From the NCBI GenBank assembly GCA_014281115.1, contig JACONQ010000011.1, positions 992,001 through 1,056,000 of the forward strand: a DNA stretch of 64,000 nucleotides. Reading direction: 5' to 3'. Below are positions 43,217 to 58,428 of this stretch, piece by piece. This DNA comes from Laburnicola sp. R22_1 (lineage: Eukaryota > Ascomycota > Dothideomycetes > Pleosporales > Didymosphaeriaceae). Every line of letters starts with the position of its first letter. Position 1 is the first letter of the stretch. Both the position numbers and the translations under genes were made by a program. Under the pieces are notes generated by a model. The model saw only the letters and a program-made list of their open reading frames with translations, was not told where the DNA came from and ran no database searches.

Positions 43217-45334
43217 CCGTGCCGACCTGGCTCGTGCCCCGCCCGGGCTTGTGCCCCATCACCAACATGCTCACCACCACAAGGATGAGGCTATTGTAAC
43301 AGCTACAAAAGGTATTATCGCGAGATTTTTTGTTGTAGCTACTCTATAAAGGAATTCGATCACTTTGTACTATCTATACTTAGCTGGAGTTTGGATAGTG
43401 CGGCCGCGGGAGTTGAGTTTAGGTGGAGCAGCTGGTGCAGCTTCTGGGGACGCCGCGCGAGCTGCAACACTACCTTTAGGTCGTTTTGGCTTGCGCTTTG
43501 TTAGAGGTGCTTTTAAAGCTTTACGCTTGCCGGTTTGGGTAATTATAGAGGCTTGCTGGGTGTTTTAAGTCGCTTTTCTAGCTGCCTGAGCAGCTGCCTG
43601 TTCAGCCTTCATCTGATCTCGCACTTCCTTAGCCCTCTATCGAGCCACACGACGCTCCTCTTTCTCTTGCTCTCGAAGTAACTTAGCAGCAGCTTGAAGC
43701 TCCTTTCTGCTCACTTTTGCAGCCCTCTCCTGCTCCTCTTAGTGTTGTTTTTCTGCCTCACGCTCACGTGCTTTCTCAACCTTAGAGGGCGACCAAAAGG
43801 TAGCACCACCATAGTATTCCTCCTCGCGCTGCAAGTCAAGAGGCTTTCCAGCGTTCTTGCGCTTCTTCTTTGCAGTAAGCATCTCCCTCAGGCCATCGTT
43901 CTCGTGCTGCAACACCTCATTTTGAACTTGAAGCTGGTGGAGCGTTTGGGAGAGCGACTTAGACTCCTCCGCCGTGGTATCCTTCACTGCAGAGCGTACA
44001 AGGCGCTCCATCCGACGCCACTCAGTTGGTAAGAGCGCTGAGGGCAGTTGCTCACTTTCATTGCCTCGTTTGCTAAAGCGTTTGAGTATAACGTTGGCGT
44101 CCATAGGGCATATACCAGTAGCTTTAAAAGCCTTGTAGACAAGATCTGTTATAAACATAAACTGCCACGCTCTCCAGAACAGTAAGAAGAAGTCTCCTTT
44201 CTAGACAGCCAGCAACCCTTGGGTCTTGAAGAGATAGGTAGAGAGCTCAGTAGAGTAGTTGCTTGAGAGAGGTTTAAAGCAAACAACGTCAAGAGGCTAA
44301 AGCGTGTGAGTAGAATGAGGGGGAAACACGGTCAGCAGTATACGGTGAGCTTCGCAGAATTCGATAAAGTCCATTAAGAGGTGACTGCCGTGGCCGTCAA
44401 GTATAAGGAGGCGCCAGTCTCTCTGCAGCCGCGCTTTCTGCTTTGTTTTGCGGTTGAACACCTGCTCAAGCCAGGCTAAACCAACGTCATTGTTCGTCCA
44501 TCCTATTGGTGAGGAGCTCACAAACACGTCGTGATTTCCAGCTTCAATCTCGTCTACCTATGAGGCTTGTAGTGTACTGTTTACTGACGAGTATATAAGG
44601 GCTGGCGGTAAAGTACTCCCATCTGCGCAAACAGTTGCCACGAGTGTCACCCACTCTCGTGAGCCATCTTGGAGTGATGCTCGCACTCTCTTTTGCTCCC
44701 ATTAAAGCCGACTAAACACCCATTTTAAGCGTCCCGTGACGCCAATCATAAAGCCCTTTTTATCCATATTATACGTGTTATGAGGCTGAACCTTATACTA
44801 AACGATCTTGTAATGCAGCAGCTCAAAGTACAACTCGTACTTGCGATGAGCGTTAGCTTGGTAGCGTACAACGTCCATACCAGCGCTCCATTTAGAGATA
44901 AGATAGTCGTGGTTGCGGTTGATGAAGCGCGAAACCCAGTTCTTGCCAACGTGCTTTTTCAATATATTTGACGCAAAATTTTGGATCATAGCTCTTATAG
45001 GAGGTAGCCCACGAGCTGTAAGCTCTCCAATATACTTGACGAGTCCCTCCTCTTGTTGTGGGCTGAGTAGTTGCTGAGACGCGTACCCATCCTGCCGGGA
45101 GCTTGTCGCGCCCTTACACCTTCTCCCCAGCGTTGAGCGATCAACACCATGTCTTTCTGCAATATTTTTGAGCGTATCATTATCTCCAGGTTCACGCGAT
45201 TTATATTCTGCAATCGCCTCGTCAATCGGTGCCATGGTGGTTGAGTTATCGCGTGTTGAAAATGATGAGATGGACGTGTTGGTGGGGTGGCTGGGGGCAC
45301 GAGCCCGGGCGGGGCACGAGCCAGGTCGGGACGG
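43217..45334 (-). mobile_element. Pogo/Fot-like DNA transposon D (RIP-damaged)
   Basis: 2118 bp with TA at 43215-43216 and 45335-45336. The inverted ends begin CCGTGCCGACCTGGCTCGTG and its close variant, followed by a repeated CCCGGGC(T)TGTGCCCC block. The right TA is shared with the foldback element F. The transposase runs on the minus strand and is broken by several stops. Closer to A and C than to E, judging by the shared TTAEESKSLSQTLH segment. Confidence 0.87.
43370..45235 (-). pseudogene. Transposase of element D, several stops
   Basis: Start MAPIDEAIAEYKSRE at 45235, natural stop TAG at 43370-43372, 622 codon positions in one frame. The helix-turn-helix part is open to 44798 (145 residues). 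Stops then break the DDE region, for instance before PLDVV, where Gln is expected. Clean pieces at 44297-44527 (SIGWTNNDVGLAWLEQVF-like, LLILDGHGSH) and 43739-44158 confirm the family. The first catalytic motif reads MDKKGF instead of MDEKGF. Dead. Confidence 0.85.
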
Positions 45335-45336
45335 TA

Positions 45337-46031
45337 CTGTGTCCGTGCACTCAACGCCCGGATTCAGTCAACGCCCGCCTTTTACTAGGAAAATCAAAGA
45401 AAATAAGCAACTTCACAGCTATATAACTCTTTAGCTAACTTTTTCTTTTTAAAAGCTTTCTTAATTAAAGTTATAGAGAAAGACTATCTCTATAACTCTA
45501 GAATTTTGGTTTTCTAATAATAATTAATTTTAAGAAAAAGTATAAAAGTACTAAAACTTAAGTCTCTAAATTTAAAAATAAATTTTTTTAGAAGTAAAGT
45601 ATGCTGTTTAGAATATAGTTTATATTAAGTTCTTTCTAATAAAACTATTAACTAGAAAGTTATATTATCTTTTATTTTTTTAAATAAAAAAATTAGGAAA
45701 GATAATCTATCTTCTTAAGTAGTCCTTTATAAAAAAAGTCTTAATATAAACTATATTCTAAACAGCATACTTTACTTCTAAAAAAATTTATTTTTAAATT
45801 TAGAGACTTAAGTTTTAGTACTTTTATACTTTTTCTTAAAATTAATTATTATTAGAAAACCAAAATTCTAGAGTTATAGAGATAGTCTTTCTCTATAACT
45901 TTAATTAAGAAAGCTTTTAAAAAGAAAAAGTAGCTAAAGAGTTATATAGCTGTGAAGTTGCTTATTTTCTTTGATTTTCCTAGTAAAAGGCGGGCGTTGA
46001 CTGAATCCGGGCGTTGAGTGCACGGACACAG
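45337..46031. mobile_element. 695-bp palindromic foldback element F (non-autonomous)
   Basis: TA at 45335-45336 and 46032-46033. The two arms, 45337-45629 and 45740-46031 (293 and 292 bp), are reverse complements with only one single-base indel that I can find; a 110-bp AT-rich spacer separates them. The outer about 45 bp of each arm are GC-rich and carry two CAACGCCCG motifs like those of element A. The rest is extremely AT-rich. There is no coding capacity. It looks like a MITE mobilised by a pogo-type transposase. As RNA or single-stranded DNA it would form a hairpin of almost 300 bp. Confidence 0.9.
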
Positions 46032-46033
46032 TA

Positions 46034-47703: not shown

Positions 47704-48229
47704 ATGAGGATGAGCTCGTGTTGGATGTCTTTATGCGCGGAGGTAGGGGTTGTTGTTGGGAGTTGTATGTATATAACGTAGCGAGCTTCGTGTATATAGT
47801 TCATGGCAAGTTGCATACCAATATCAGTTCGATCTTCTGCATCATCACTGTCCACTCAGACTACGTTCGCGTAGGGCTCAACTCACTTCAAGCTCTCTAG
47901 TGCCCCGTACATCTCAGCATCAGGGTACATAATCGAGTGCCTCTGTACTGAAGATCGTCGTCGTGAGAGATTCTAACCTAGGTCGAGTCCGCACAATACA
48001 CAAGGAGGGGTAAAACAGGAGGCGCTAAACCCAGTACCTAGCACACAGTGGCAGTAACAACATACACAAAATCACGATAATTTCGTCGTCAACGTTCTGC
48101 ACGGCATCATCGTCGTCGGCGAGTGCCTCTGTACAATATCTATTTCAAAGTTTTCACGACAAGTTAACATTGTTTCTTCAATGAGCAAAACAAATTCGAT
48201 CCCCAGCCCAAAATAACGACGCCGCCCCC
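47704..48229. other. 0.5-kb gap after the epoxide hydrolase
   Basis: I see no coding sequence. It should contain the 3' end of the hydrolase transcript and the sequence beyond the last codon of the ATP-grasp relic. Confidence 0.4.
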
Positions 48230-48631
48230 TCACCCCGACGCAAACACCTTCGTCGTACTAACATTAATCCGACTCCAGCGCTTGCCCTCGAAAAGAGCCT
48301 CTCAAAATCTCACAGGCCAATAAACGTGATACAGCACAAAAAATGGCACGGGATCCCATAACCCTAACCCTCCAACCCTCCGGCACCCGCAACCCCAACT
48401 CCCCAACATACTCCACAAACCGATCCTTCACATGCAACCGCTCCACCGCCTCCTCGCCAAACTGCACAGCCTGGAACCCCTCCCCCCTCGCCTGCTGCGC
48501 TATCCGGACGACAGCCCCGTCCTCCACAGCAGCAACAACGCTCGAGCAACTAATCCACAAATCTACCCTCTCCGCCGTAATCACATCGACCAGCGCCTCG
48601 ATATACGGCTCTGCATCCACTGTGTGCTAGG
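48230..48631 (-). pseudogene. Relic of a MysC-type ATP-grasp ligase, core deleted
   Basis: Two parts of one protein family lie side by side in different frames on the minus strand. From about 48620 to 48370 comes the pre-ATP-grasp segment, with YIEALVDVITAERVDLWISC, a VAAVEDG stretch and a VQF...LHVKDRFVEYVGELGLRVPE run. Directly after it, about 48358 to 48230, is the C-terminal tail, WDPVPFFVLYHVYWPVRF then KRWSRINVSTTKVF. The last part has one stop (TGA, probably from Trp). The ATP- and substrate-binding core of some 300 residues and the N-terminal anchor are missing. Cyanobacterial MysC joins glycine to 4-deoxygadusol. The match is from my knowledge of the family, not a search. The related MysB- and MysA-type genes lie 6-8 kb away. 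Confidence 0.68.
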
Positions 48632-48689
48632 TACTGGGTTTTAGTGCCTCCTGTTTTACTCCTCTCTGTGTATGGTGCGGACTCAACCT

Positions 48690-49132
48690 TAGTTAGAATC
48701 TCCACACGACGTAGATCTTCAATAGAAGAAAAGGCACCTTATTTAGGTAATCAGAAGATAGTATGAGTTTCTTCTGGCCAGGTCCACGTATCAGCGCAAG
48801 AGTTGGAATTGCCTGTCTTACTAATAGCTCGCGGTTAACAAACTGCCCTTTCCTGAGCTCTTCCTTAATTATCTTGTTCTTAATATATTCAAACGTAGGT
48901 GTCATATTTATTATATTTCCATCTAAATCGCTTTTATCTACATGATCTATTTATCTGTAGATATAATCATAAAACCCTTATGATTAGCGTCTAGCGTATG
49001 CATAAAGAAGAACGTCTGTTTAATCTTTAATATAACACAATAAGGGTCCAGTAGAAGTTTTTTAGCGTGTATCTGTTTGACCTCGTCTCTTAGGGCTTGA
49101 GCGCTCCCTCGCCTCTCTTGTGTGAGGGACAT
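48690..49132 (-). other. AT-rich stretch with fragmentary frames, possible decayed element
   Basis: Two minus-strand frames (49132-48947 and 48905-48693) have Lys/Ile/Leu-rich translations and nearly join through a third frame across 48910-48950 (HVDKSDLDGNIINM leading into MTPTFEYIKN). That suggests a single older coding sequence broken by shifts. I do not recognise the family. A GA microsatellite follows at 49320-49342. Confidence 0.35.
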
Positions 49133-49319
49133 ATATCGGTTATATGTAGGAAGCGGCAGGAGAAGTCGTCGTATGGTTGCCGCGGCTCAACATGGTGTCT
49201 AGAGACACGTAGGACTACGGCGATCCGGGAGCAGAGATAAAGATGGGGCTGGAAGGTGTAAACTGTCGCTGTAAAAGAAATATTAGGGAGGGGAGTGCCG
49301 ATCAAGAAACGAGAATATG

Positions 49320-49342
49320 AGAGAGAGAGAGAGAGAGAGAGG
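49320..49342. repeat. (GA)n microsatellite
   Basis: About eleven GA repeats, uninterrupted, just downstream of the surface-protein gene's 3' end. Confidence 0.95.
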
Positions 49343-49438
49343 AAAGAGACTTCCAATGTTCGTTGGCAACAATAAATATGAAAGTATTTAGACGAATCTT
49401 TTTCTCATTGTCGCCATCTTTCCTGATTCATTCCAAAC

Positions 49439-52315
49439 CTAGACCGCAAACATCATCAATAGGCCAAGACATACCAATTCCCACATAAACGGCACCATCG
49501 CTACTTCACCCGCGGCCGAGGTGTTCTGGGGATCTTCCGGCGTGGTCGTCCTTGGATCGTCTTTTGTCTCGGACACGGTTGAATCTGTTCGGTGGGAATC
49601 TGTACGAATGGAAGTGGTCGGTGTACTCTGGGGTGCTATCGTATCCCCCGAAGGATCACCGGATAGAGGAAATGTTTGAACCCGCTGGTCATCCACCCAA
49701 ACGACACCATTTGAATCAACGACCACTTTATGTCCATTTACAAAGATTTCGGGATCTCCTGGGCGGATGGCGTGCGTGTTGTCGACAAGAACCGTACCGT
49801 CACTTAGCACCGCGATAGAAAGGCCGGAAATGGTAGTTGATGCCTGCACGGCTGCAGTCAGGGGAAGTGTGGGTGTCTCGTCAACAACAACTACGGAAGG
49901 CCCATTTTGACTGAGCGTCTGTACGGGCTGGCCCGAGTCTGGGTCTCCTACGATGATGACGCCGGATTGATTGGGGTCTGTAAAGACTGGTTTACCGTTG
50001 ACTATACCGACTGGTTGGAGTGTTAACTCTCCGCTCACAACTACCACGCTGCTTGTGGGATCTACAGATATGGTGGTCCCAGAAATGACGATGGGATCGC
50101 TTCCTGCTGTGAGAGTTGCTGCACCGCCGGGTCTGTTAGGGTCTGAAATGATGATAGTTCCCGGGTGAGATGGGTCTGTGTTGATTATACTGTTGCCAAT
50201 AGTGCCTATTGGCGTAGGACCTGCTGATGGCCTGGTGATAGGTCGAGGCCCATTATTAGGTTCTTGTGGCGATGGTGATCTACTGGTCGCTGGATCGAGA
50301 TCGTTCGGTAGAGGATCGTTCGGTGCAGGATTGTTCAGTGCAGGATTGTTCAGTGCAGGATTGTTCGGTGCAGGATTGTTTGGTGCAGGATTGTTTGGTG
50401 CAGGATTGTTCGGTGCAGGATCGTTCGGGCGAGAAATACTTGGTCTGGGGTCATCCGGATTGGGATTGACTGATACTTCTGGGTTGTTGGGGCCTGGTCT
50501 TGATGTAGGCACCGTGATTGTAGAGGTAAACCTGGTGGTGATTGTAGGCTGCGTAATCGGAAGCACAGTAGCACTCGCCCCCGTGGTAATTGTCTGACCT
50601 GGCGTGGGGGCACTTGTTGGACGGGTTTCAGAACGCGTACTGGTGGTCAGGAAGTTCGGCACAGATCCAAGTGCTATCGGGGGGTCGGGAACGCCATCAA
50701 ATTGTGGAACGCAGCTTGCCCACTCTGGATCCTCGGCACGGACTTGTGGAGGCACGGCCAAACCTGGAACCCACCAAGACGAGACTATATTCTCACATGC
50801 ACTATTGCATCGTGGCATGCATTGGTACGCTGAGGCTGGTATGTCTCCAACCAGGTCTTCGAAGTTGAAAGGTTTCGCGGTGGCAGCGATCACCAAACCA
50901 TACGGCCTCGTGGGATTGTACTGGATACCGCAAATTGAGGACAAGTCACTCGAGGAGATCTCGACCAGGTGCTTAGAATAAGTTCCGCCAACGGGTACCT
51001 GAGTTGCACCGAGACCATTGTCGAGTGAACAGAACTTGTAAGCCGAAACCGTGTCGTATCGAACGTACGCCTTGTCGTACCAAAATGTGGTAGAATTGAT
51101 AATCGTTGAAGAGTGCGGATGAGAGAAGATCGAGACAGAGTAACTATTGAATCCAGGGCTGGTGTTTGCGCAGAGATCGCGGCTAGCGGAAGGCGGTGGG
51201 AAGTAAAGAAGTTCGACACTATTTGCCGCCACAGTGCACCGCGCTGTGGTGCATTGATCTTGGATGATGCTTCCTGACGGTCGAGTGCAATTTCCGACAG
51301 TAGGTCCAAAAGGTCTTAAAATCTGGTCCCTGTCCCATGTTAAAATTTGTCGCCCGCCTGGCGTAAGGGTAACTTCTCCGTAGAGATTAGTCCCGCCGGA
51401 GATAGTGTAGGTCCCTTCATCGGCACCATACTCCTCTCCGTGAAGTGTTAACACTGGATAAGTGCCTGGAGGAGCTGTAAGTGGAGTCTCCCTGTTATTG
51501 ACCACGACAGACGTCGGCGGTGAGGCTAACGACACCGTAAGGATATTGCTTGTACTCCATGCGCTGTTACTGCTGGCAAGAGAGGAGGCGAATAAAGACC
51601 ATGCGGCAGAGCATTCATCAGCGTTGCGAACGGAGCATGATGGGGAAGGTGGAAAGTTCTCTCCAGTCGGCTGGATATAATTTACAGTCAAATACGAGCT
51701 GACCGTCGTGATAGGGGTTGGCAGAAGCACAGTCGCATTATCGGCTTCTTCTGGAAAGTCAAAGCGAGGCAAACCATCGCAAAGAATGGAATAAGTGGCA
51801 TTCAGGGAAGGTTCGGGAACACCAGATTGGATAGTTGATGTGTAGGTGACGGTTCTGGTGACGGTCGTTCTGTGCGCTTGCGACCACGACCTTGTCATTG
51901 AGCTATATGACCAATACGCAGGCCAGCATTGTGTGGCATTGTTAAGGTCTGGTTGTTTCAGCCCTGGGAAACCTCTGGCTACTCGTGCATTTGCTCACCT
52001 GTGCCATTGAAATATGGATTGGCTGTCGTGGTGGAATTTGAAGTGGCAAGAGCCGAGATGTTTGCGACCTGCGAAGCTGAGATGCCATTTGTGATGGTGA
52101 TATTGGGAGTAGTGCTCCTTGAAAATGTCGAAGACCTATTTGCGACAAGTTCGCTACTCGTAGAAGGCGTCGTTGTGCCCCATGTTGTGTTGCCTACGCC
52201 CGGAGCCGTGCCGAACACTATGCCTGTCAGTCTCTTTCAATTATTGAAGTGGTGAGGACCTCTCACTCAACGGTCGCCCTGTGCTCAGAGCGAGCGATCG
52301 CACAAAGGACTCCAT
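49439..52315 (-). CDS. Ser/Thr/Pro-rich cell-surface protein with Pro-Asn-Asn-Pro-Ala repeats
   Basis: Modelled exons 52267-52315, 51999-52223 and 49439-51948 total 927 residues in phase. The main exon is certain; the 5' intron (43 bp) and first exon are tentative, since the second exon has no ATG and its N-terminus is not a clear signal peptide. The N-terminal half has many Asn-x-Ser/Thr sites and Cys pairs. A 15-bp repeat region (about 50300-50428) codes PNNPA units. Then come beta-rich segments with repeated PV-(V/I)-x-G-x-x-(I/V) patterns (SDPIVISGTTISVDPTS, DGTVLVDNTHAIRPGD). The last 20 residues are hydrophobic, like a GPI signal. Probably a wall or surface adhesin-like protein; no enzyme motif seen. 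Confidence 0.75.
50300..50428. repeat. 15-bp coding minisatellite (PNNPA units)
   Basis: About eight tandem copies of TTGTTCGGTGCAGGA with few changes, in frame inside the surface-protein gene. It is likely to vary in copy number between strains. Confidence 0.9.
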
Positions 52316-52568
52316 CGCAAAGATTTTCTTCAAGGAAACAACATTGAAGTCTCAATAAGAGGACTCAGGTTTTTTACCGGCCATATTACCTCCTTCACCC
52401 CGGTTCCTGGCCTTAGATGCCGAGAGGCTGTGCAGACACGTCGGGAGTAACCCCAGCTAGTGCTGACTCACTGTACAGGGAGCTTTACGCCAATCACAGC
52501 ATGTGAATCAATACTCACGATGGCTAGAAACTATACAGGGGTTACTCCTGACGTGACTACACCCTGTA

Positions 52569-54048
52569 CGGAGGTGCCTTTCAAAAGTTCTGTCTGACGC
52601 TAAAAGCGCCACCACAACGCCCAGCTCTTGGCACTAAAATACTTGAGATAGGAGCAATCTGATCTCTCTTCTGATCAACCATGGCCCCCAATACTGACGT
52701 GTATACGCGTACTCTTGTTGTTACTCTCAAATCACCATCTGTTGGCAAGTCAACCTCTCAAGTCTCAGAGCTCACTGGCATCAAACCACGCACAATTGAT
52801 CGTATCTACAGCCGAGCTATTGCTGCTGGCTTCGAGCCCAACGTTCTGCCTCTCAAGATCCTCCCACACCACGTTCAAGACGCTCCTCGCTCTGGGCGCC
52901 CATCCAAACAGACGCAGGAGGTCAAGGAGGAGGTATTACAACAAGTATGCCGCGACAGATATGGACGTGAAAAGACCTGCGCTGACGTAGCTGGTGGGCT
53001 TAGTCTGCGAGGGATAGATCTCTTAGCTACTACTGTCTGGCGAGTCTTGAGAGAGGCTGGATACCACAAGACAAAGCCAACGAGGAAGCCTGGGTTGACA
53101 CAGAAGATGAGGACTGAGAGATTAAAGTGGGCGCTTGAGCACGTTACTTGGACGCTTGAGGATTGGAAGAACGTTATATGGACAGATGAGACTTCTGTCG
53201 TTCTTGGTCATCGCCGTGGTGGATACAGAATATGGAGGAGACCTGAGGAGCGCGTAGTCAAGAGCTGTATACGTGAGAGATGGAAGGGATACTCTGAGTT
53301 CATGTTCTGGGGCTGCTTTACGTACGACAAGAAGGGTCCTTGCTATGTCTACAAGCCAGAGACTAAGGTAGAGAAGCAGATAGCTGCTCAAAGGATCAGT
53401 GAGCTGAACGCTGAGCTCGAGCCTTTAATGCGAGATGAGTGGGAGCTGAACACAGCCATAAGGAGGACAGGACTACGCAACAAGCCAGGCAAGAAACCTC
53501 AATGGAAATGGACAGCCAAGAATGGCAAGCTCGTACGCAGCTCTGGTGGAGGCATTGATTAGTGGCGATACCAGACGTGCGTTCTTATCCCTAAGCTTCT
53601 GCCCTTCGCGCAGGAGTGTATGAAGGATAGGCCACAGACTGTGGTGATAGAGGATAAGGCACCTGCGCATGCACACCACTATTAGGATACAGTGTACAGT
53701 CTGTACAAGGTCACAAAGTTGCTCTGGTGTGGCAACTCACTAGACTGCAACTGCATTAAGCCATGCTGGTTCTATATGAAGAGAGAGACTACAAAGAAGG
53801 GAGCTCCTTAATCAAGAGCAGAGGGTATTAAGGCGTGGGAGAGATGCTGGCGAGACCTCCCTCAATTAAAGATACAAGCTTGGATTAAGCGTATTATTAA
53901 ACATATCCCTAAGATTATTAAGCTTAAAGGTGGCAATGAGTACCTTGAAGGGAGAGGAGAAAAGCGAGTTAGATAGATCAGCAATATGTGGCGTTTTGGT
54001 GGCGTTGTGGCTTTCCTTGGCAGACAGAACTTTTGAAAGGCACCTCCG
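52569..54048 (+). mobile_element. Tc1/mariner transposon (RIP-damaged)
   Basis: 1480 bp with TA at 52567-52568 and 54049-54050. Inverted ends read CGGAGGTGCCTTTCAAAAGT and its complement, extending some 50 bp through TTCTGTCTG and the GGCGTTGTGG block with mismatches. It lies 254 bp upstream of the surface-protein start and about 360 bp beyond the methyltransferase 3' end. One transposase frame inside. Confidence 0.9.
52681..53976 (+). pseudogene. Tc1/mariner (DD-D) transposase, three nonsense codons
   Basis: 432 codon positions from ATG 52681 to TAG 53974-53976. Stops at 53560-53562, 53683-53685 and 53809-53811 stand where Trp, Gln and Gln are expected (for example HHY-stop-D for HHYQD), all explicable by CpA-to-TpA changes. 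N-terminal helix-turn-helix with ITGIKPRTIDRIY-like recognition helix and an AT-hook-like GRPSK; catalytic Asp in IWTDE, in VIEDKAPAH and in NSLDCNCIKPCW. The first 293 residues are an open frame. No indels. Confidence 0.88.
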
Positions 54049-54050
54049 TA

Positions 54051-54407
54051 TATTCATTGGGCATGTGACGCGCCGCGCGGTGACACCTGGATTGTTTTTT
54101 GGAGGGCTCTATACCCGGATCGTATATTGGCCCCTTCGGAGAAGGATTACATTGGCTAGAACAATTTTGCCAAGACATCTAATACTTGGCGTTGACTAGA
54201 ATGTTTTATTATTCGTCCATTCGTTTACAGATTGTAAGACTCAGCAGCACAACCAAGATTCAATAGCTATAGTACCTAAAAAAAGGGCGCGATTGAGATC
54301 CAGCCGAAGCATAACGCGATGATTGTAGGATTAAATAGGGGACTTAGAAAATACAGAGAATACCAGTTGATCGTGTACAACGCCCAATGATCAGGCTTAT
54401 AGAAAGC
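54051..54407. other. 0.36-kb gap between Tc1 element and methyltransferase 3' end
   Basis: Nothing recognisable. Presumably the 3' untranslated region of the methyltransferase. Confidence 0.4.
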
Positions 54408-55360
54408 TCACTTCTCTTCGCCGACGCACCTCGTAATCTCAACACCATCCTATCAAGACATTAGCTAAGACTCTCGTATGTGGGAGATTTACCCTACCGG
54501 TTCACCAGTAGGCTCATAGCTGTTCACCAGCTTGCTCTCATAGACCAAATTCGGGTTACCAGGACTCTTGCTCAACTTCTCCGCTCCGTACCTGTTCGCA
54601 TACTGCTTGACGGTCTTCTCCGCAATGCCCTGGGTACTATCGCCCTTGCCCTCTCCTGCGTAGTCTTTCTTCTTCTCGCCCACGCTGCTGCGCACGTACT
54701 CCAGATACCGTGGGTTGCCCGGCTTGATCACGTTGTCCGCTACAAGTACCGAGCCAGGAGTAATCAAGCCGAGTTCTTCGCAAAGCTTGAGGTCCGTCGT
54801 GTACGCGGGCTTGTAGTGGTCGAGGAACATCAGATCGATGTGCTTGAGCGAGCCAGACGAATGTAGGCGCGTGAGCTCTTCGTCACTGGATCCCACTATG
54901 ACCTTGACAATGTCGGAGAGCCCTGCGAGATCGACCAGCGACGAGATCACGGCTGCGAATTCGGGGTTGCGCTCCAGGCTGTAGTAGCGTTCCCCGCCAG
55001 CTTGTCGTACCGCGTCGGCATAGAGGATGCAAGAGTATCCAACATACCCGCCCAGCTCAACCTACGCAAAGCATCAGCAAGCAAATCGAACTTGGAATTG
55101 GTTCGATGCACCATAGTTTTTGGCTTCACCTCTGCGATCAAATCGCAAACAATGCGGCCCTTGTCTTCGCCAACGTTCATGAGGTACTTTTTCGTCCGTC
55201 CAAACTCATCAATGACCGCGAGAACATCTTTTGGAGAGCCACGGATCTTGTCCAGGTTCGGGTGCGAGTACACGAAGTGCAGAAGCTTAATTTCGCGGCC
55301 ATCGTCGAAGAACGTCTCTTCTTGCGGCGCGTATGACTTCGTTTGGTCGAAACTTCCCAT
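54408..55360 (-). CDS. SAM-dependent O-methyltransferase family 3 (COMT-like), MysB candidate
   Basis: Exons 55112-55360, 54498-55061 and 54408-54449 (introns 50 and 48 bp) give 284 residues; an in-frame ATG at 55378 would add six. Start MGSFDQTKSYAPQEETFF is the usual opening in this group. The SAM-binding motif VELGGYVGYSCILYADA begins exactly after intron 1, followed by YYSLERNPEF, the metal-site region HIDLMFLDHYK and VLVADNVIKPGNP. The last exon supplies the end of a conserved tail (YEPTGEP then DGVEITRCVG) that would be missed without intron 2. Enzymes of this fold methylate catechols. Its divergent partner is a DDGS-type cyclase, so its likely job is methylation of demethyl-4-deoxygadusol to 4-deoxygadusol. 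All motifs appear intact. Confidence 0.85.
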
Positions 55361-56769
55361 GGTCAAGCCCAAGGTCATAAAATATATCTTGCGGCTACGC
55401 GTCCAACAATTGTTACGGTCACTTCGGCGCGTAAACACTAGCGGGGTACAGCAGACTGAAGACGGAGCGCATCGGACAGAAGTCGGCCAATTCTAAGCCC
55501 ACAAAGGACCCCACTAAATGTAAAGGTCAGTCTTTACGCGCATAAATCAGAAAACCAGTCAATTGAAGTCGTGCCATCCCGCATTCGCGTATACATTTCG
55601 GAGGAGCTGTGCCTTGCTATGTTCCGTTAACGGTATTAAAGGCTTCCTTTATGATGCTGATTCCGGGCAGTTTGTCGGAAACCACCCACCGAGAATTGAT
55701 CAATTCCTGCCAATTTCCTTGTGCAATTGGCATGCGGAGTCTTGACGTGATGTCGTTGCCGTCAATGACTTTTGCGTTGTCTCGCTTACCAGAAGCGGCA
55801 TGGGTAGCGCAAAAGGAACGTACAAATGGACTAACCGTTCAAAGAAAAGGTATTGTCGTGACAACTGTCGGATCATGGACGCGTCTATCCGAAGCGGGAA
55901 CTAGGATCTTGCAGGATGTGACGTTCAAGATCGGAAGCCCTGGTGGAGGCTAAGGCGACTTGCTTGAGCCTCACAACAGGCTTCTCCATTGACACTTCAA
56001 ACGAAACCATTGGAGTTCTTGCGATGAGGGAATTCCTTACCCACTCACACGTGTGGCTTACATAGAGGACATCATCTGCAACTAGAATAAGGGCCGCAAA
56101 GTCATGAAGTTATGGCTCCGGAATCGCCCCGTAAACCCCTCAGCGCTATCTACTGTAACTTGCATCAGATCTCGCCCTATCATAGTTAGCGCTGCGAATC
56201 CCAGTTCATTCCCGTTCCTGAAAAGCACTACTCGGCTCTAACAGCAAGATTTCCGTCGAAATGGGCATATTTTCGTATATCTTGCTATTAGGCCCGCGTA
56301 CGCCTAGTGCGATCTCATTGTTCTGGATGCTGGATCAAAAATGTGCATGACCAGAGCACGATTTGCATGTGCCGAAACCAGCTAAGTAAAGATCCAGGCC
56401 CGTGGCATGCCGTACTGGATGGGTCGTTTCATCATGTTGTTCCCATATAAGCTTAGGTTAGCGGACCGCATAAGTTAGTCTTCGAGCTCCAGAGACAAGT
56501 GCGAATAACGAGTGATGAGCAAAGCGGTTCGAGTGACGTTACCAGCCGTCGCCGGCATGTCAAGCCAATAGAAGCCCCGTACTTGCCCATGAACCCGGAA
56601 GTCGACTGGAAGCGTCTATTGGAAGCAATCCTTTATATAGGGTGACGGCCGATACGTATCCTGCAGCAGATATCAACTATCCCACTCGAGATTTCCTGTC
56701 TCATAATCTATAAAAGGTTAGGTCGACTATAAACAGATATGAATGAATGAACTGTCTCATATCGTCTTA
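55361..56769. promoter_or_regulatory. 1.4-kb divergent region between methyltransferase and cyclase
   Basis: No supported gene. TATAAAAG at 56709-56716 lies 54 bp before the cyclase start and is a good TATA box. The distance is long for a divergent pair; a frame at 55609-55953 (114 codons) has no recognised domain. Light- or stress-responsive sites were not identified with any certainty. Confidence 0.45.
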
Positions 56770-58428
56770 ATGTCGGACCTCAAGGCTTCCGTTGTCGAAA
56801 CGCAGAACGGCTTCCACGTGGAAGGATACGAAAAGAGTACGTAAACCCATGCATGGTATACCTGCGCCGGTCCCATTGAACTATGCATCATTGGTGACTT
56901 CTTTACTGACTTGTGCCCTTGTGACTAGTCGAATACGACTTCACCTTCCTCGATGGCGTGTTCAATCCGGAGAACAAGCAGCTTGCCGACTGCTACCAGC
57001 GTTGGGGCCGCGCTCCTGCGGTCATGGACTTGAACATCTTCAACTTGTATGGTGAACAGATGCAGAAGTACTTCGACCATCACAAGCATGAGTTGAAGAT
57101 CCACAAGACCATGATTGGAGAGAAGGCCAAGTCCATGGACACGTTGCTTAGCATCATGGACTCTATGACGGATTTTGGCATCATCCGGAAGGGGCCGGTT
57201 TTGGCCGTTGTACGTAGTTCAACCTGTTCTCCCGTTGGGTTCTGCTGATAGACTCGAAGGGAGGAGGACTCGTCACTGACGTCGCAGGGTAAAGCCATAC
57301 CATTGGTCCATCGCCTAAGAACATATCTAAGGCACTCTGACCTACCAGTCTTCCAGATCAATGTGCTAACGTCCGTTCATAGGTTTGCTTGTGCCGCATA
57401 CCGAAGGAACACAGACTTCATCCGGATCCCGACAACGGTTATTGGCCTAATCGATGCCAGTGTCAGCATCAAGGTTGCCGTGAACTACGGCAACTACAAG
57501 AACCGTCTTGGAGCGTACCACGCTCCTATGCATACCTTCCTCGATTTCACATTCCTTCGTACCTTGCTTGAGTCGCAGGTACGAAATGGCTTCGCTGAGT
57601 TGATCAAGATTTCCAGCTGTTTCCACCTGCGAACGTTTGAACTACTCGATGAGTTCTGCGAGCGATGGATCCAGACCAAATTTGGTCGCGCTGGGGATGA
57701 TTCCGGCGAAGTGCGAAAGGCGGCGGATGAGATTAACCGTTCTGGCATTTACGAGATGTTGAAGCTTGAAACTCCCAACCTACACGAGATCGGCTTGGAT
57801 AGTGTCATCGCTTACGGACACACATGGAGCCTACTGCACGAGGTTAGTACTTCCTCAACGTCGTCAACGATTGCTCACATTGATGCAGCTTACCCCTCCT
57901 GTGCCACTTCACCACGGTCATGCCATTTCGATCGACATGGCGTACTCTGCAACACTCGCCAATGGCCGCTAGCTGTTGAGTGATGAAGAGCATCGTCGCC
58001 TGCTCAACCTGTTCTCGCGTGCCGGTCTATCAATGGACCATGAACTCTTCAATGAGGAGATCCTCGGAAAGGCCACGCAAGCCATCCTGAAGACCCGAGA
58101 TGGTAAGCTGCGAGCGGCTGTACCCAACCCACTCGGAAGTTGCGTCTTCCTCAACGACGTTACCGCGGATGAAATGAATGCTGCGCTACGGCGACACAAA
58201 GAAATTATGAAGGGATATCCCCGCAATGGCGAGGGTATCGACGCTTTTGTAGATGCGAGCGACACCGGCTACACTATGAACGCTGTGCCTGTCGAGAAGA
58301 CGATGAATGGTACCACCAAGGCCAATGGTATCAAGACCAATGGCGCCCTCGACAAGGTTGCCAATGGAATGCCCAGCTCCCTGCAGGAGGTTATGGCGAA
58401 TGGGTATGAGAACGGAGATCGCAACTAA
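56770..58428 (+). pseudogene. Sugar-phosphate cyclase, 2-demethyl-4-deoxygadusol synthase (MysA/DDGS) type, one in-frame stop
   Basis: Exons 56770-56836, 56929-57209, 57260-57288, 57383-57842 and 57889-58428 sum to 459 codons. The protein is a dehydroquinate-synthase-fold cyclase that acts on sedoheptulose 7-phosphate with NAD+ and a metal. It shows VEGYEKIEYDF at the start, the NAD loop GGGLVTDVAGFACAAYRR built across a 29-nt exon, IPTTVIGLIDASVSIKVAVN, RLGAYHAP, AELIKIS, the metal His in AYGHTW and in HHGHAISID, then KTRDGKLRAAVPNPLG. A single TAG at 57970-57972 follows SATLANGR and is followed in frame by LLSDEEHRRLL and 150 more good codons. The stop would remove the C-terminal domain. 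It may be a real null allele or a sequence error. The tail after about residue 420 is low in complexity. Divergent from the MysB-type methyltransferase. Confidence 0.85.

What the first reader, a model, noticed from the sequence alone, without database searches (positions are those of the whole stretch)
48230..58428. Decaying mycosporine (MysA-MysB-MysC) cluster split by a transposon
A DDGS-type cyclase and a family-3 O-methyltransferase lie divergently at 54.4-58.4 kb, and pieces of a MysC-type ATP-grasp ligase lie 6 kb away. Seen: the motifs named in the features, the stop in the cyclase and the missing ligase core. Known: MysA, MysB and MysC turn sedoheptulose 7-phosphate into 4-deoxygadusol and mycosporine-glycine in cyanobacteria, and homologues occur in fungi. 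Inferred: the three genes were once one cluster, now separated by a surface-protein gene and a Tc1 element. The damage pattern (ligase core deleted, cyclase nonsense, methyltransferase intact) suggests loss of the end product first, or a lineage that gave up UV-screen synthesis.
Basis: partly seen in the sequence, partly recalled or inferred. Interest (0 to 1): 0.9.

Follow-up and report, generated by a model that had tools for sequence, protein, structure and literature searches.

The report
Broken sunscreen gene cluster in fungus
In a genome that matches a root-dwelling fungus, the three genes whose relatives make a UV sunscreen (mycosporine) are damaged: the first has a stop codon inside it, the last is reduced to two scraps, and only the middle one is intact, so this fungus has likely lost the sunscreen.

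Summary
[quoted passage not shown] Spliced correctly, the cyclase has five exons and one real in-frame stop (codon 307 of 458). The OMT is intact. The ligase keeps two scraps (83 and 42 codons); its start and about 246 core codons are gone. Relatives confirm the cluster: ligase and cyclase sit on contigs of identical length in 14 of 17 paired species, and ligase and OMT share a gene model in 10 of 120. Searches found no other intact copy in the genome. By tree the cyclase is DDGS, not DHQS or EEVS. The largest contig's length identifies the host as Laburnicola rhizohalophila R22-1, a dark septate root endophyte. Corrections: the Tc1 is young and breaks no gene; MITE copies flank the ligase scraps; a SINE-like piece lies just before the cyclase start. 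Which gene died first is open: the damage points to the ligase, substitution patterns do not decide. Decayed clusters are a known kind of thing; many sequenced isolates make this one testable.

The parts
56770..58428 (+). DDGS (MysA-type) cyclase gene, five exons, 458 codons with one in-frame stop
   Evidence: Exon model gives one frame with GT..AG introns; 86% identical to Paraphaeosphaeria minitans P0001 over full length; tree
57970..57972 (+). in-frame TAG, codon 307
   Evidence: 0 of the 120 listed relatives have a stop or gap at this column
54489..55360 (-). O-methyltransferase gene (OMT), two exons (intron 55111-55062), 273 aa, intact
   Evidence: Methyltransf_3 and Methyltransf_24 over cut-off; 87% to the OMT half of Karstenula P0131, 83% to Bimuria P0138
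55361..56769 (.). 1409-bp divergent intergenic region between OMT and cyclase
48369..48617 (-). ligase scrap 1: 83 codons matching P0124 residues 76-158
   Evidence: tblastn 64-70% in the 83-residue alignments, best E 1e-31
48230..48355 (-). ligase scrap 2: 42 codons at the 3' end of the gene, including an inner TGA (48304-48302) and the final stop
47945..48120 (.). complete copy of an abundant palindromic MITE of about 180 bp, with a direct repeat of 12 bp or slightly more on both sides (target-site duplication, read by eye)
48617..48724 (.). truncated copy (108 of about 180 bp) of the same MITE, joined directly to ligase scrap 1
49439..51994 (-). 851-codon open frame between OMT and the ligase scraps; no Pfam match; no second copy found
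52567..54050 (.). Tc1-type transposon with terminal inverted repeats and TA at both ends
   Evidence: HTH_Tnp_Tc3_2; 20 more copies at 95-99%; ends
56696..56761 (+). 5'-truncated SINE-like insert between 10-bp direct repeats, the second of which ends 8 bp before the cyclase ATG
   Evidence: 54-bp match in all 13 copies fetched (85-98%) and the 10-bp repeats
54224..54325 (+). second fragment of the same SINE-like family, 3' of OMT

Best explanation
This is a decayed fungal mycosporine cluster: a DDGS cyclase gene with an in-frame stop, an intact O-methyltransferase gene and a ligase gene reduced to two scraps, so the fungus likely makes no mycosporine and probably no 4-deoxygadusol. The layout (cyclase on one strand; OMT, then ligase, on the other) is that of the working cluster in the yeast Phaffia, where cyclase and OMT make 4-deoxygadusol and the ligase adds glutaminol (shown in Phaffia, PMC10057719; inferred here from homology). 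Here the ligase lost its start (the break runs into a truncated MITE) and about 246 core codons. The cyclase has changes at conserved sites that look unconstrained, and then a stop that may be recent, since the 54 conserved sites behind it are still unchanged. The inferred cause is relaxed selection in a root endophyte that lives away from light. Shown: the gene states, the cluster in relatives, and that searches found no other copy. Inferred: loss of function, the cause, and the order ligase first, cyclase second.
For: Gene models and stop. DDGS identity: 86% full-length to a fungal DDGS relative; best PDB hit 5tpr 461 bits, against 222 for 4p53 and about 104 or fewer for the other DHQS-type entries; the 5tpr sequence is 98% identical to a Nostoc cyclase that lies beside mysB and mysC; the tree places the window cyclase with P. 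minitans (98/81) and Bimuria (100/98) inside DDGS. Ligase: the scraps match P0121-P0125 and the wider family, which aligns with synteny-checked bacterial MysC. Cluster in relatives: contigs of identical length in 14 of 17 species paired by hand, locus tags two apart in three of these, OMT-ligase joined gene models in 10 of the 120 listed. No second copy found. Relaxed cyclase: 9 of 256 conserved columns changed (second highest of 121; median of the others 1). Host: the largest contig, 4,903,573 bp, and the count of 26 contigs equal Table 1 of PMC7936028, a root endophyte; Nanopore assembly polished twice with Illumina reads.
Against: Relative-rate tests on the cyclase are mixed: chi2 9.0 against Lophiostoma but 3.27 and 1.47 against the two nearest relatives. 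The cyclase's overall branch is ordinary (0.11 against 0.09). That all 9 changed sites lie before the stop (202 columns) and none of 54 after it would happen by chance about one time in eight (my arithmetic), so the recency of the stop is only a hint. The ligase scraps' differences are mostly conservative, which fits recent rather than ancient decay, and their place in the family tree is unresolved (p-AU 0.29), so descent from this cluster's own ligase is likely but not proven. Stop readthrough or RNA editing is not excluded.
Confidence: 0.85

Rival explanations
1. The cyclase is still made: its stop is read through or edited in the RNA, and with the intact OMT it yields 4-deoxygadusol as the end product, only the ligase step being lost.
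For: The frame continues for 151 open codons after the stop and all 54 conserved sites there are unchanged. A Phaffia strain without the ligase makes 4-deoxygadusol (PMC10057719). OMT changes are conservative.
Against: Nine conserved sites before the stop are altered, two of them (R266S, P276L) in the stretch that the Phaffia paper uses to tell Ddgs from Dhqs. None of the 120 listed relatives has a stop there. I know of no such editing in this fungal class (recalled).
Confidence: 0.08
2. The ligase scraps are not the cluster's own ligase but a transposon-carried or displaced fragment of another MysC-type gene that landed nearby. (This overlaps with the main reading: the cluster would still be broken.)
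For: MITE copies flank the scraps; the best trees place them near Periconia, not in the host's family; they lie 5.9 kb from OMT with an open frame of another kind between.
Against: The left MITE has its own target duplication, so the two copies look like separate insertions and not the ends of one element; the right one is truncated. The scraps were found once in the genome. Strand and order match the cluster in Phaffia and the joined gene models of relatives. Membership of the family clade is not rejected (p-AU 0.29).
Confidence: 0.1
3. The stop is a sequencing or assembly error and the cyclase is intact.
For: It is the only lesion in the frame.
Against: No frameshift is needed and the stretch is not a homopolymer; the published assembly was polished twice with Illumina reads; there are independent signs of relaxed constraint. 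Reads were not available here.
Confidence: 0.04

Closest known systems
MYC cluster of Phaffia rhodozyma (DDGS, OMT, ATPG; PMC10057719)
   Same: Same three kinds of gene, cyclase divergent from OMT, ligase after OMT on the same strand; 1568-bp divergent region there, 1409 bp here
   Different: Here the ligase is reduced to two scraps, the cyclase has a stop, and 5.9 kb with a Tc1 and another open frame lie between OMT and the scraps
Cyanobacterial mysA-mysB-mysC (for example L045, Nostoc)
   Same: Cyclase and ligase are homologous
   Different: The fungal OMT is only 23% identical to Nostoc MysB (36 bits) and closer to catechol O-methyltransferases (151 bits to 5zy5); gene orientation differs
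P. rhodozyma strains without mycosporines (PMC10057719, section 2.6)
   Same: Natural loss of the trait
   Different: There the whole cluster is absent; here it is caught part-way
Bimuria novae-zelandiae cyclase P0002 and OMT-ligase model P0138
   Same: Nearest genome relative in the authors' species tree (PMC7936028); same genes
   Different: Frames open, but the ligase deviates at 8 of 173 conserved columns (median of the family 1), including the arginine of the CNPR stretch, and cyclase and ligase lie on contigs of different length

Membership tests
DDGS (MysA-type sugar phosphate cyclase) | Groups with DDGS rather than EEVS or DHQS | tested here: met
   Tree, (outgroup branches are long); PDB ranking
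DDGS (MysA-type sugar phosphate cyclase) | DHQ_synthase and DHQS_C domains over cut-off | tested here: met
   (read-through frame, X at the stop)
DDGS (MysA-type sugar phosphate cyclase) | Complete open reading frame | tested here: not met
   TAG at codon 307 of 458; hence most likely a DDGS pseudogene, not a working DDGS
DDGS (MysA-type sugar phosphate cyclase) | Makes desmethyl-4-deoxygadusol from sedoheptulose 7-phosphate | not testable with these tools
   Needs enzyme assay or LC-MS
Fungal cluster OMT | Orthologous to the OMT next to the ligase in relatives | tested here: met
   74-87% identical to the OMT half of 10 joined gene models
Cyanobacterial MysB | Clear sequence membership of MysB | tested here: not met
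   23% over 157 residues, 36 bits; closer to COMT
MysC-type ATP-grasp ligase | Sequence match to the family | tested here: met
   family aligned to bacterial MysC. Directly against Nostoc MysC the scrap gives only E 0.13
MysC-type ATP-grasp ligase | ATP-grasp core present | tested here: not met
   P0124 residues 159-404 have no close counterpart in the window or genome; one distant frame matches 205-335 at 23%
Fungal mycosporine cluster | DDGS, OMT and ligase linked, in this order and orientation | tested here: met
   Window layout; relatives; the ligase is 5.9 kb from OMT with another frame between
Fungal mycosporine cluster | Produces mycosporine | not testable with these tools
   No chemistry available

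The most novel reading that the evidence does not exclude
The pathway was dismantled from its end: after the ligase was lost, the fungus lived for a time on 4-deoxygadusol as its final product, then lost the cyclase as well, and the orphan methyltransferase is still kept under selection for another substrate.
Probability: 0.15. Interest if true: 0.6.

Novelty: new member of a known kind. Interest (0 to 1): 0.42.

Why it matters
It catches the loss of a widespread fungal UV screen part-way, in a species for which 47 genomes were analysed and reads of 114 further isolates deposited (PMC11245560, passages), and which carries a melanin gene island with a sign of positive selection (PMC8629976, passages). 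That makes it possible to ask directly in which order the genes of a linear pathway die, and whether a root fungus trades mycosporine for melanin.

Tried and rejected
Considered and rejected: (1) That the reported cyclase stop was a misread intron: two of the raw-frame stops are intronic, but the TAG at 57970 is exonic. Of the in-frame splice alternatives with a GT donor that would remove it, only longer versions of intron 4 (seven acceptors) use a donor like the real ones; the shortest would also remove 27 residues with the HGH stretch (that the other donors are poor is my judgement). (2) That the ligase scraps sit inside one transposon with the two MITE arms as its ends: the left MITE has its own target duplication and the right one is truncated. 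(3) That another frame in the genome (C3:661668-663134, L116:3669-5135) is the missing MysC: distant matches only (E 0.17 and 2.6e-5), no Pfam match. (4) Dating the losses by substitutions: the scraps change at 10 of 68 conserved sites against 11 of 315 in the cyclase (Fisher p 0.001) and 11 of 178 in OMT (p 0.04), but the scraps' changes are conservative, so age and prior divergence cannot be separated.

Led nowhere: a viral-contig scan for a fungal cyclase; NCBIfam gave no model over its cut-off; literature searches showed no published decayed fungal mycosporine cluster in the listings that I saw. PMC4426668 was seen in passages and not used.
Full report
What is there. The window is C3:992001-1056000 of a 63.9-Mb, 26-contig genome. 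Its largest contig seen, C1, is 4,903,573 bp, exactly the largest scaffold of Laburnicola rhizohalophila R22-1 (26 scaffolds, 64,007,018 bp; PMC7936028, abstract, Methods and Results read); the genome held here is 75 kb shorter. That fungus is a dark septate endophyte from roots of the halophyte Suaeda salsa, family Didymosphaeriaceae. The naming of the host is my inference from these numbers. The nearest protein relatives (Paraphaeosphaeria, Bimuria) agree with the family.

The cyclase. With introns of 92, 50, 94 and 46 nt the gene at 56770-58428 reads as 458 codons with one in-frame TAG, codon 307. Two further stops in the raw frame fall in the 50-nt intron. The protein is 86% identical to P. 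minitans P0001 over its full length (3301 hits, the best 120 listed; these 120 are 'the relatives' below). Among solved structures the best match is 5tpr (461 bits), then 4p53 (222), then DHQS-type entries (about 104 or fewer). The PDB calls 5tpr '3-dehydroquinate synthase' and 4p53 'Cyclase'; that they are Anabaena DDGS and a valiolone synthase (EEVS) is recalled, but the 5tpr sequence is 98% identical to a Nostoc cyclase that lies beside a methyltransferase and a MysC-type ligase. A tree of 30 rows places the window cyclase inside the fungal DDGS clade, with cyanobacterial and actinobacterial mysA next, and EEVS and DHQS outside (the outgroup branches are long). In that tree P. minitans is nearer than Bimuria (98/81), while the authors' species tree has Bimuria nearest; I cannot explain this. 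The genome has one other DHQ_synthase match, on C23, whose frames I take to be the AROM protein.

Relaxed constraint. Of 256 columns at least 95% conserved in the relatives, 9 are changed (L52P, V99M, E111G, V115A, N137D, P188L, R266S, P276L, R287H). The median relative has 1, the next highest 5, except P0113 with 17. R266S and P276L fall in the stretch by which the Phaffia authors tell Ddgs from Dhqs. All nine lie among the 202 conserved columns before the stop, none among the 54 after it; chance alone gives that about one time in eight (my arithmetic), so it only hints that the stop is recent. Relative-rate tests are mixed (chi2 9.0 against Lophiostoma, 3.27 against P. minitans, 1.47 against Bimuria), and the total branch length is ordinary. 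The 11 changes special to this branch have mean BLOSUM62 -1.0, within what is expected without constraint (-0.38, sd 0.48).

The methyltransferase. 273 aa, one 50-nt intron, no stop, Methyltransf_3 and Methyltransf_24. It is 87% and 83% identical to the OMT halves of the joined OMT-ligase gene models of Karstenula and Bimuria, and 74-87% over all ten such models (six of the ten sequences viewed). I read these as gene models that run two tandem neighbours together. It deviates at 7 of 152 columns invariant in the others (the ten themselves: 1 to 5, and 11 in P0217). Relative-rate counts are 10 to 3 against Karstenula (chi2 3.77) and 8 to 7 against Bimuria. Its 11 branch changes are conservative (mean 0.73; 1.6% of 5000 unconstrained simulations reach that). 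It is far from Nostoc MysB (23%, 36 bits) and nearer to catechol O-methyltransferase (151 bits), so 'MysB' fits by role only.

The ligase. Scrap 1 (83 codons) and scrap 2 (42 codons, with an inner TGA and the final stop) match residues 76-158 and 405-444 of P0124 from Paraconiothyrium; about 246 residues between them and everything before are missing. The family (1276 hits, 120 listed) aligns at about 30% with MysC from synteny-checked Nostoc and Williamsia clusters. In 14 of 17 species that I paired by hand between the lists the ligase and the cyclase are on contigs of the same length; the three misses are Bimuria, P. nodorum and P. minitans, the last two with locus tags from different assemblies. 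Locus tags lie two apart in Neocucurbitaria sp. VM-36, N. cava and Boeremia exigua. No other copy of the scraps was found in the genome, and searches with Nostoc MysC and with P0124 found only the scraps and one distant frame. The scraps are 66-70% identical to six Didymosphaeriaceae ligases, which are 76-92% identical to one another over the same columns. Their place in the tree is unresolved: nearest Periconia with weak support, family membership not rejected.

Mobile elements. A complete MITE with a target duplication of about 12 bp (read by eye) lies 109 bp behind scrap 2, and a truncated copy of the same family abuts scrap 1; 40 of 1186 candidate places were scored. A Tc1 element (52567-54050) has 20 further copies at 95-99%, 40 of 82 candidates scored, so it is young; it lies 438 bp behind OMT and breaks no gene that I found. 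A 5'-truncated SINE-like piece with 10-bp direct repeats ends 8 bp before the cyclase ATG, and another fragment lies behind OMT. The paper reports 43% repeats in this genome.

How it works, or worked. In Phaffia, DDGS and OMT make 4-deoxygadusol and the ligase adds glutaminol; deletion of the ligase leaves 4-deoxygadusol, deletion of the cyclase abolishes mycosporines (PMC10057719: abstract, Introduction and sections 2.1, 2.2 and 2.6 read, others in passages). By that logic R22-1 likely makes neither product. The order of loss is inferred: structural damage puts the ligase first, the perhaps recent stop puts the cyclase later, but the conservative nature of the scraps' differences (mean BLOSUM 0.21 against -0.49, sd 0.31, without constraint) means that most of their divergence may predate the loss.

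Context. The species carries a melanin gene island with a sign of positive selection (PMC8629976, passages). A term search finds neither mycosporine nor gadusol in the main text of that paper or of PMC11245560; the Methods and Results of PMC7936028 do not mention them. No published account of this decay was seen in the listings; the library is open-access papers only.

Verdict. A real, well-supported decayed cluster; ordinary in kind, useful in its timing and host.

Noticed in passing
P0138 and P0002 (Bimuria novae-zelandiae): The ligase of the authors' nearest genome relative has an open frame but deviates at 8 of 173 conserved columns (family median 1), including the arginine of the CNPR stretch; its cyclase has the third most BLOSUM-negative changes of 121. 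The same pathway may be relaxing there too.
   Followed up: partly
45335-46033: A nested palindrome: arms of 206 nt (98%) and 119 nt (96%), probably another MITE or a nested pair, beside an epoxide hydrolase-like frame.
   Followed up: no
47945-48120 and copies genome-wide: A palindromic MITE of about 180 bp with target duplications of about 12 bp, with 1186 candidate places in the genome, 40 of them scored.
   Followed up: partly
L116:3669-5135 (C3:661668-663134): A 488-aa open frame weakly similar to MysC-type ligases, without a Pfam match; possibly a far ATP-grasp-like relative.
   Followed up: partly
54489-55360: This fungal cluster OMT looks COMT-like rather than MysB-like, as if fungi and cyanobacteria used different methyltransferase families for the same step.
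   Followed up: partly
43739-45367 (-): Transposase-like frames left of the locus; judged by eye only.
   Followed up: no
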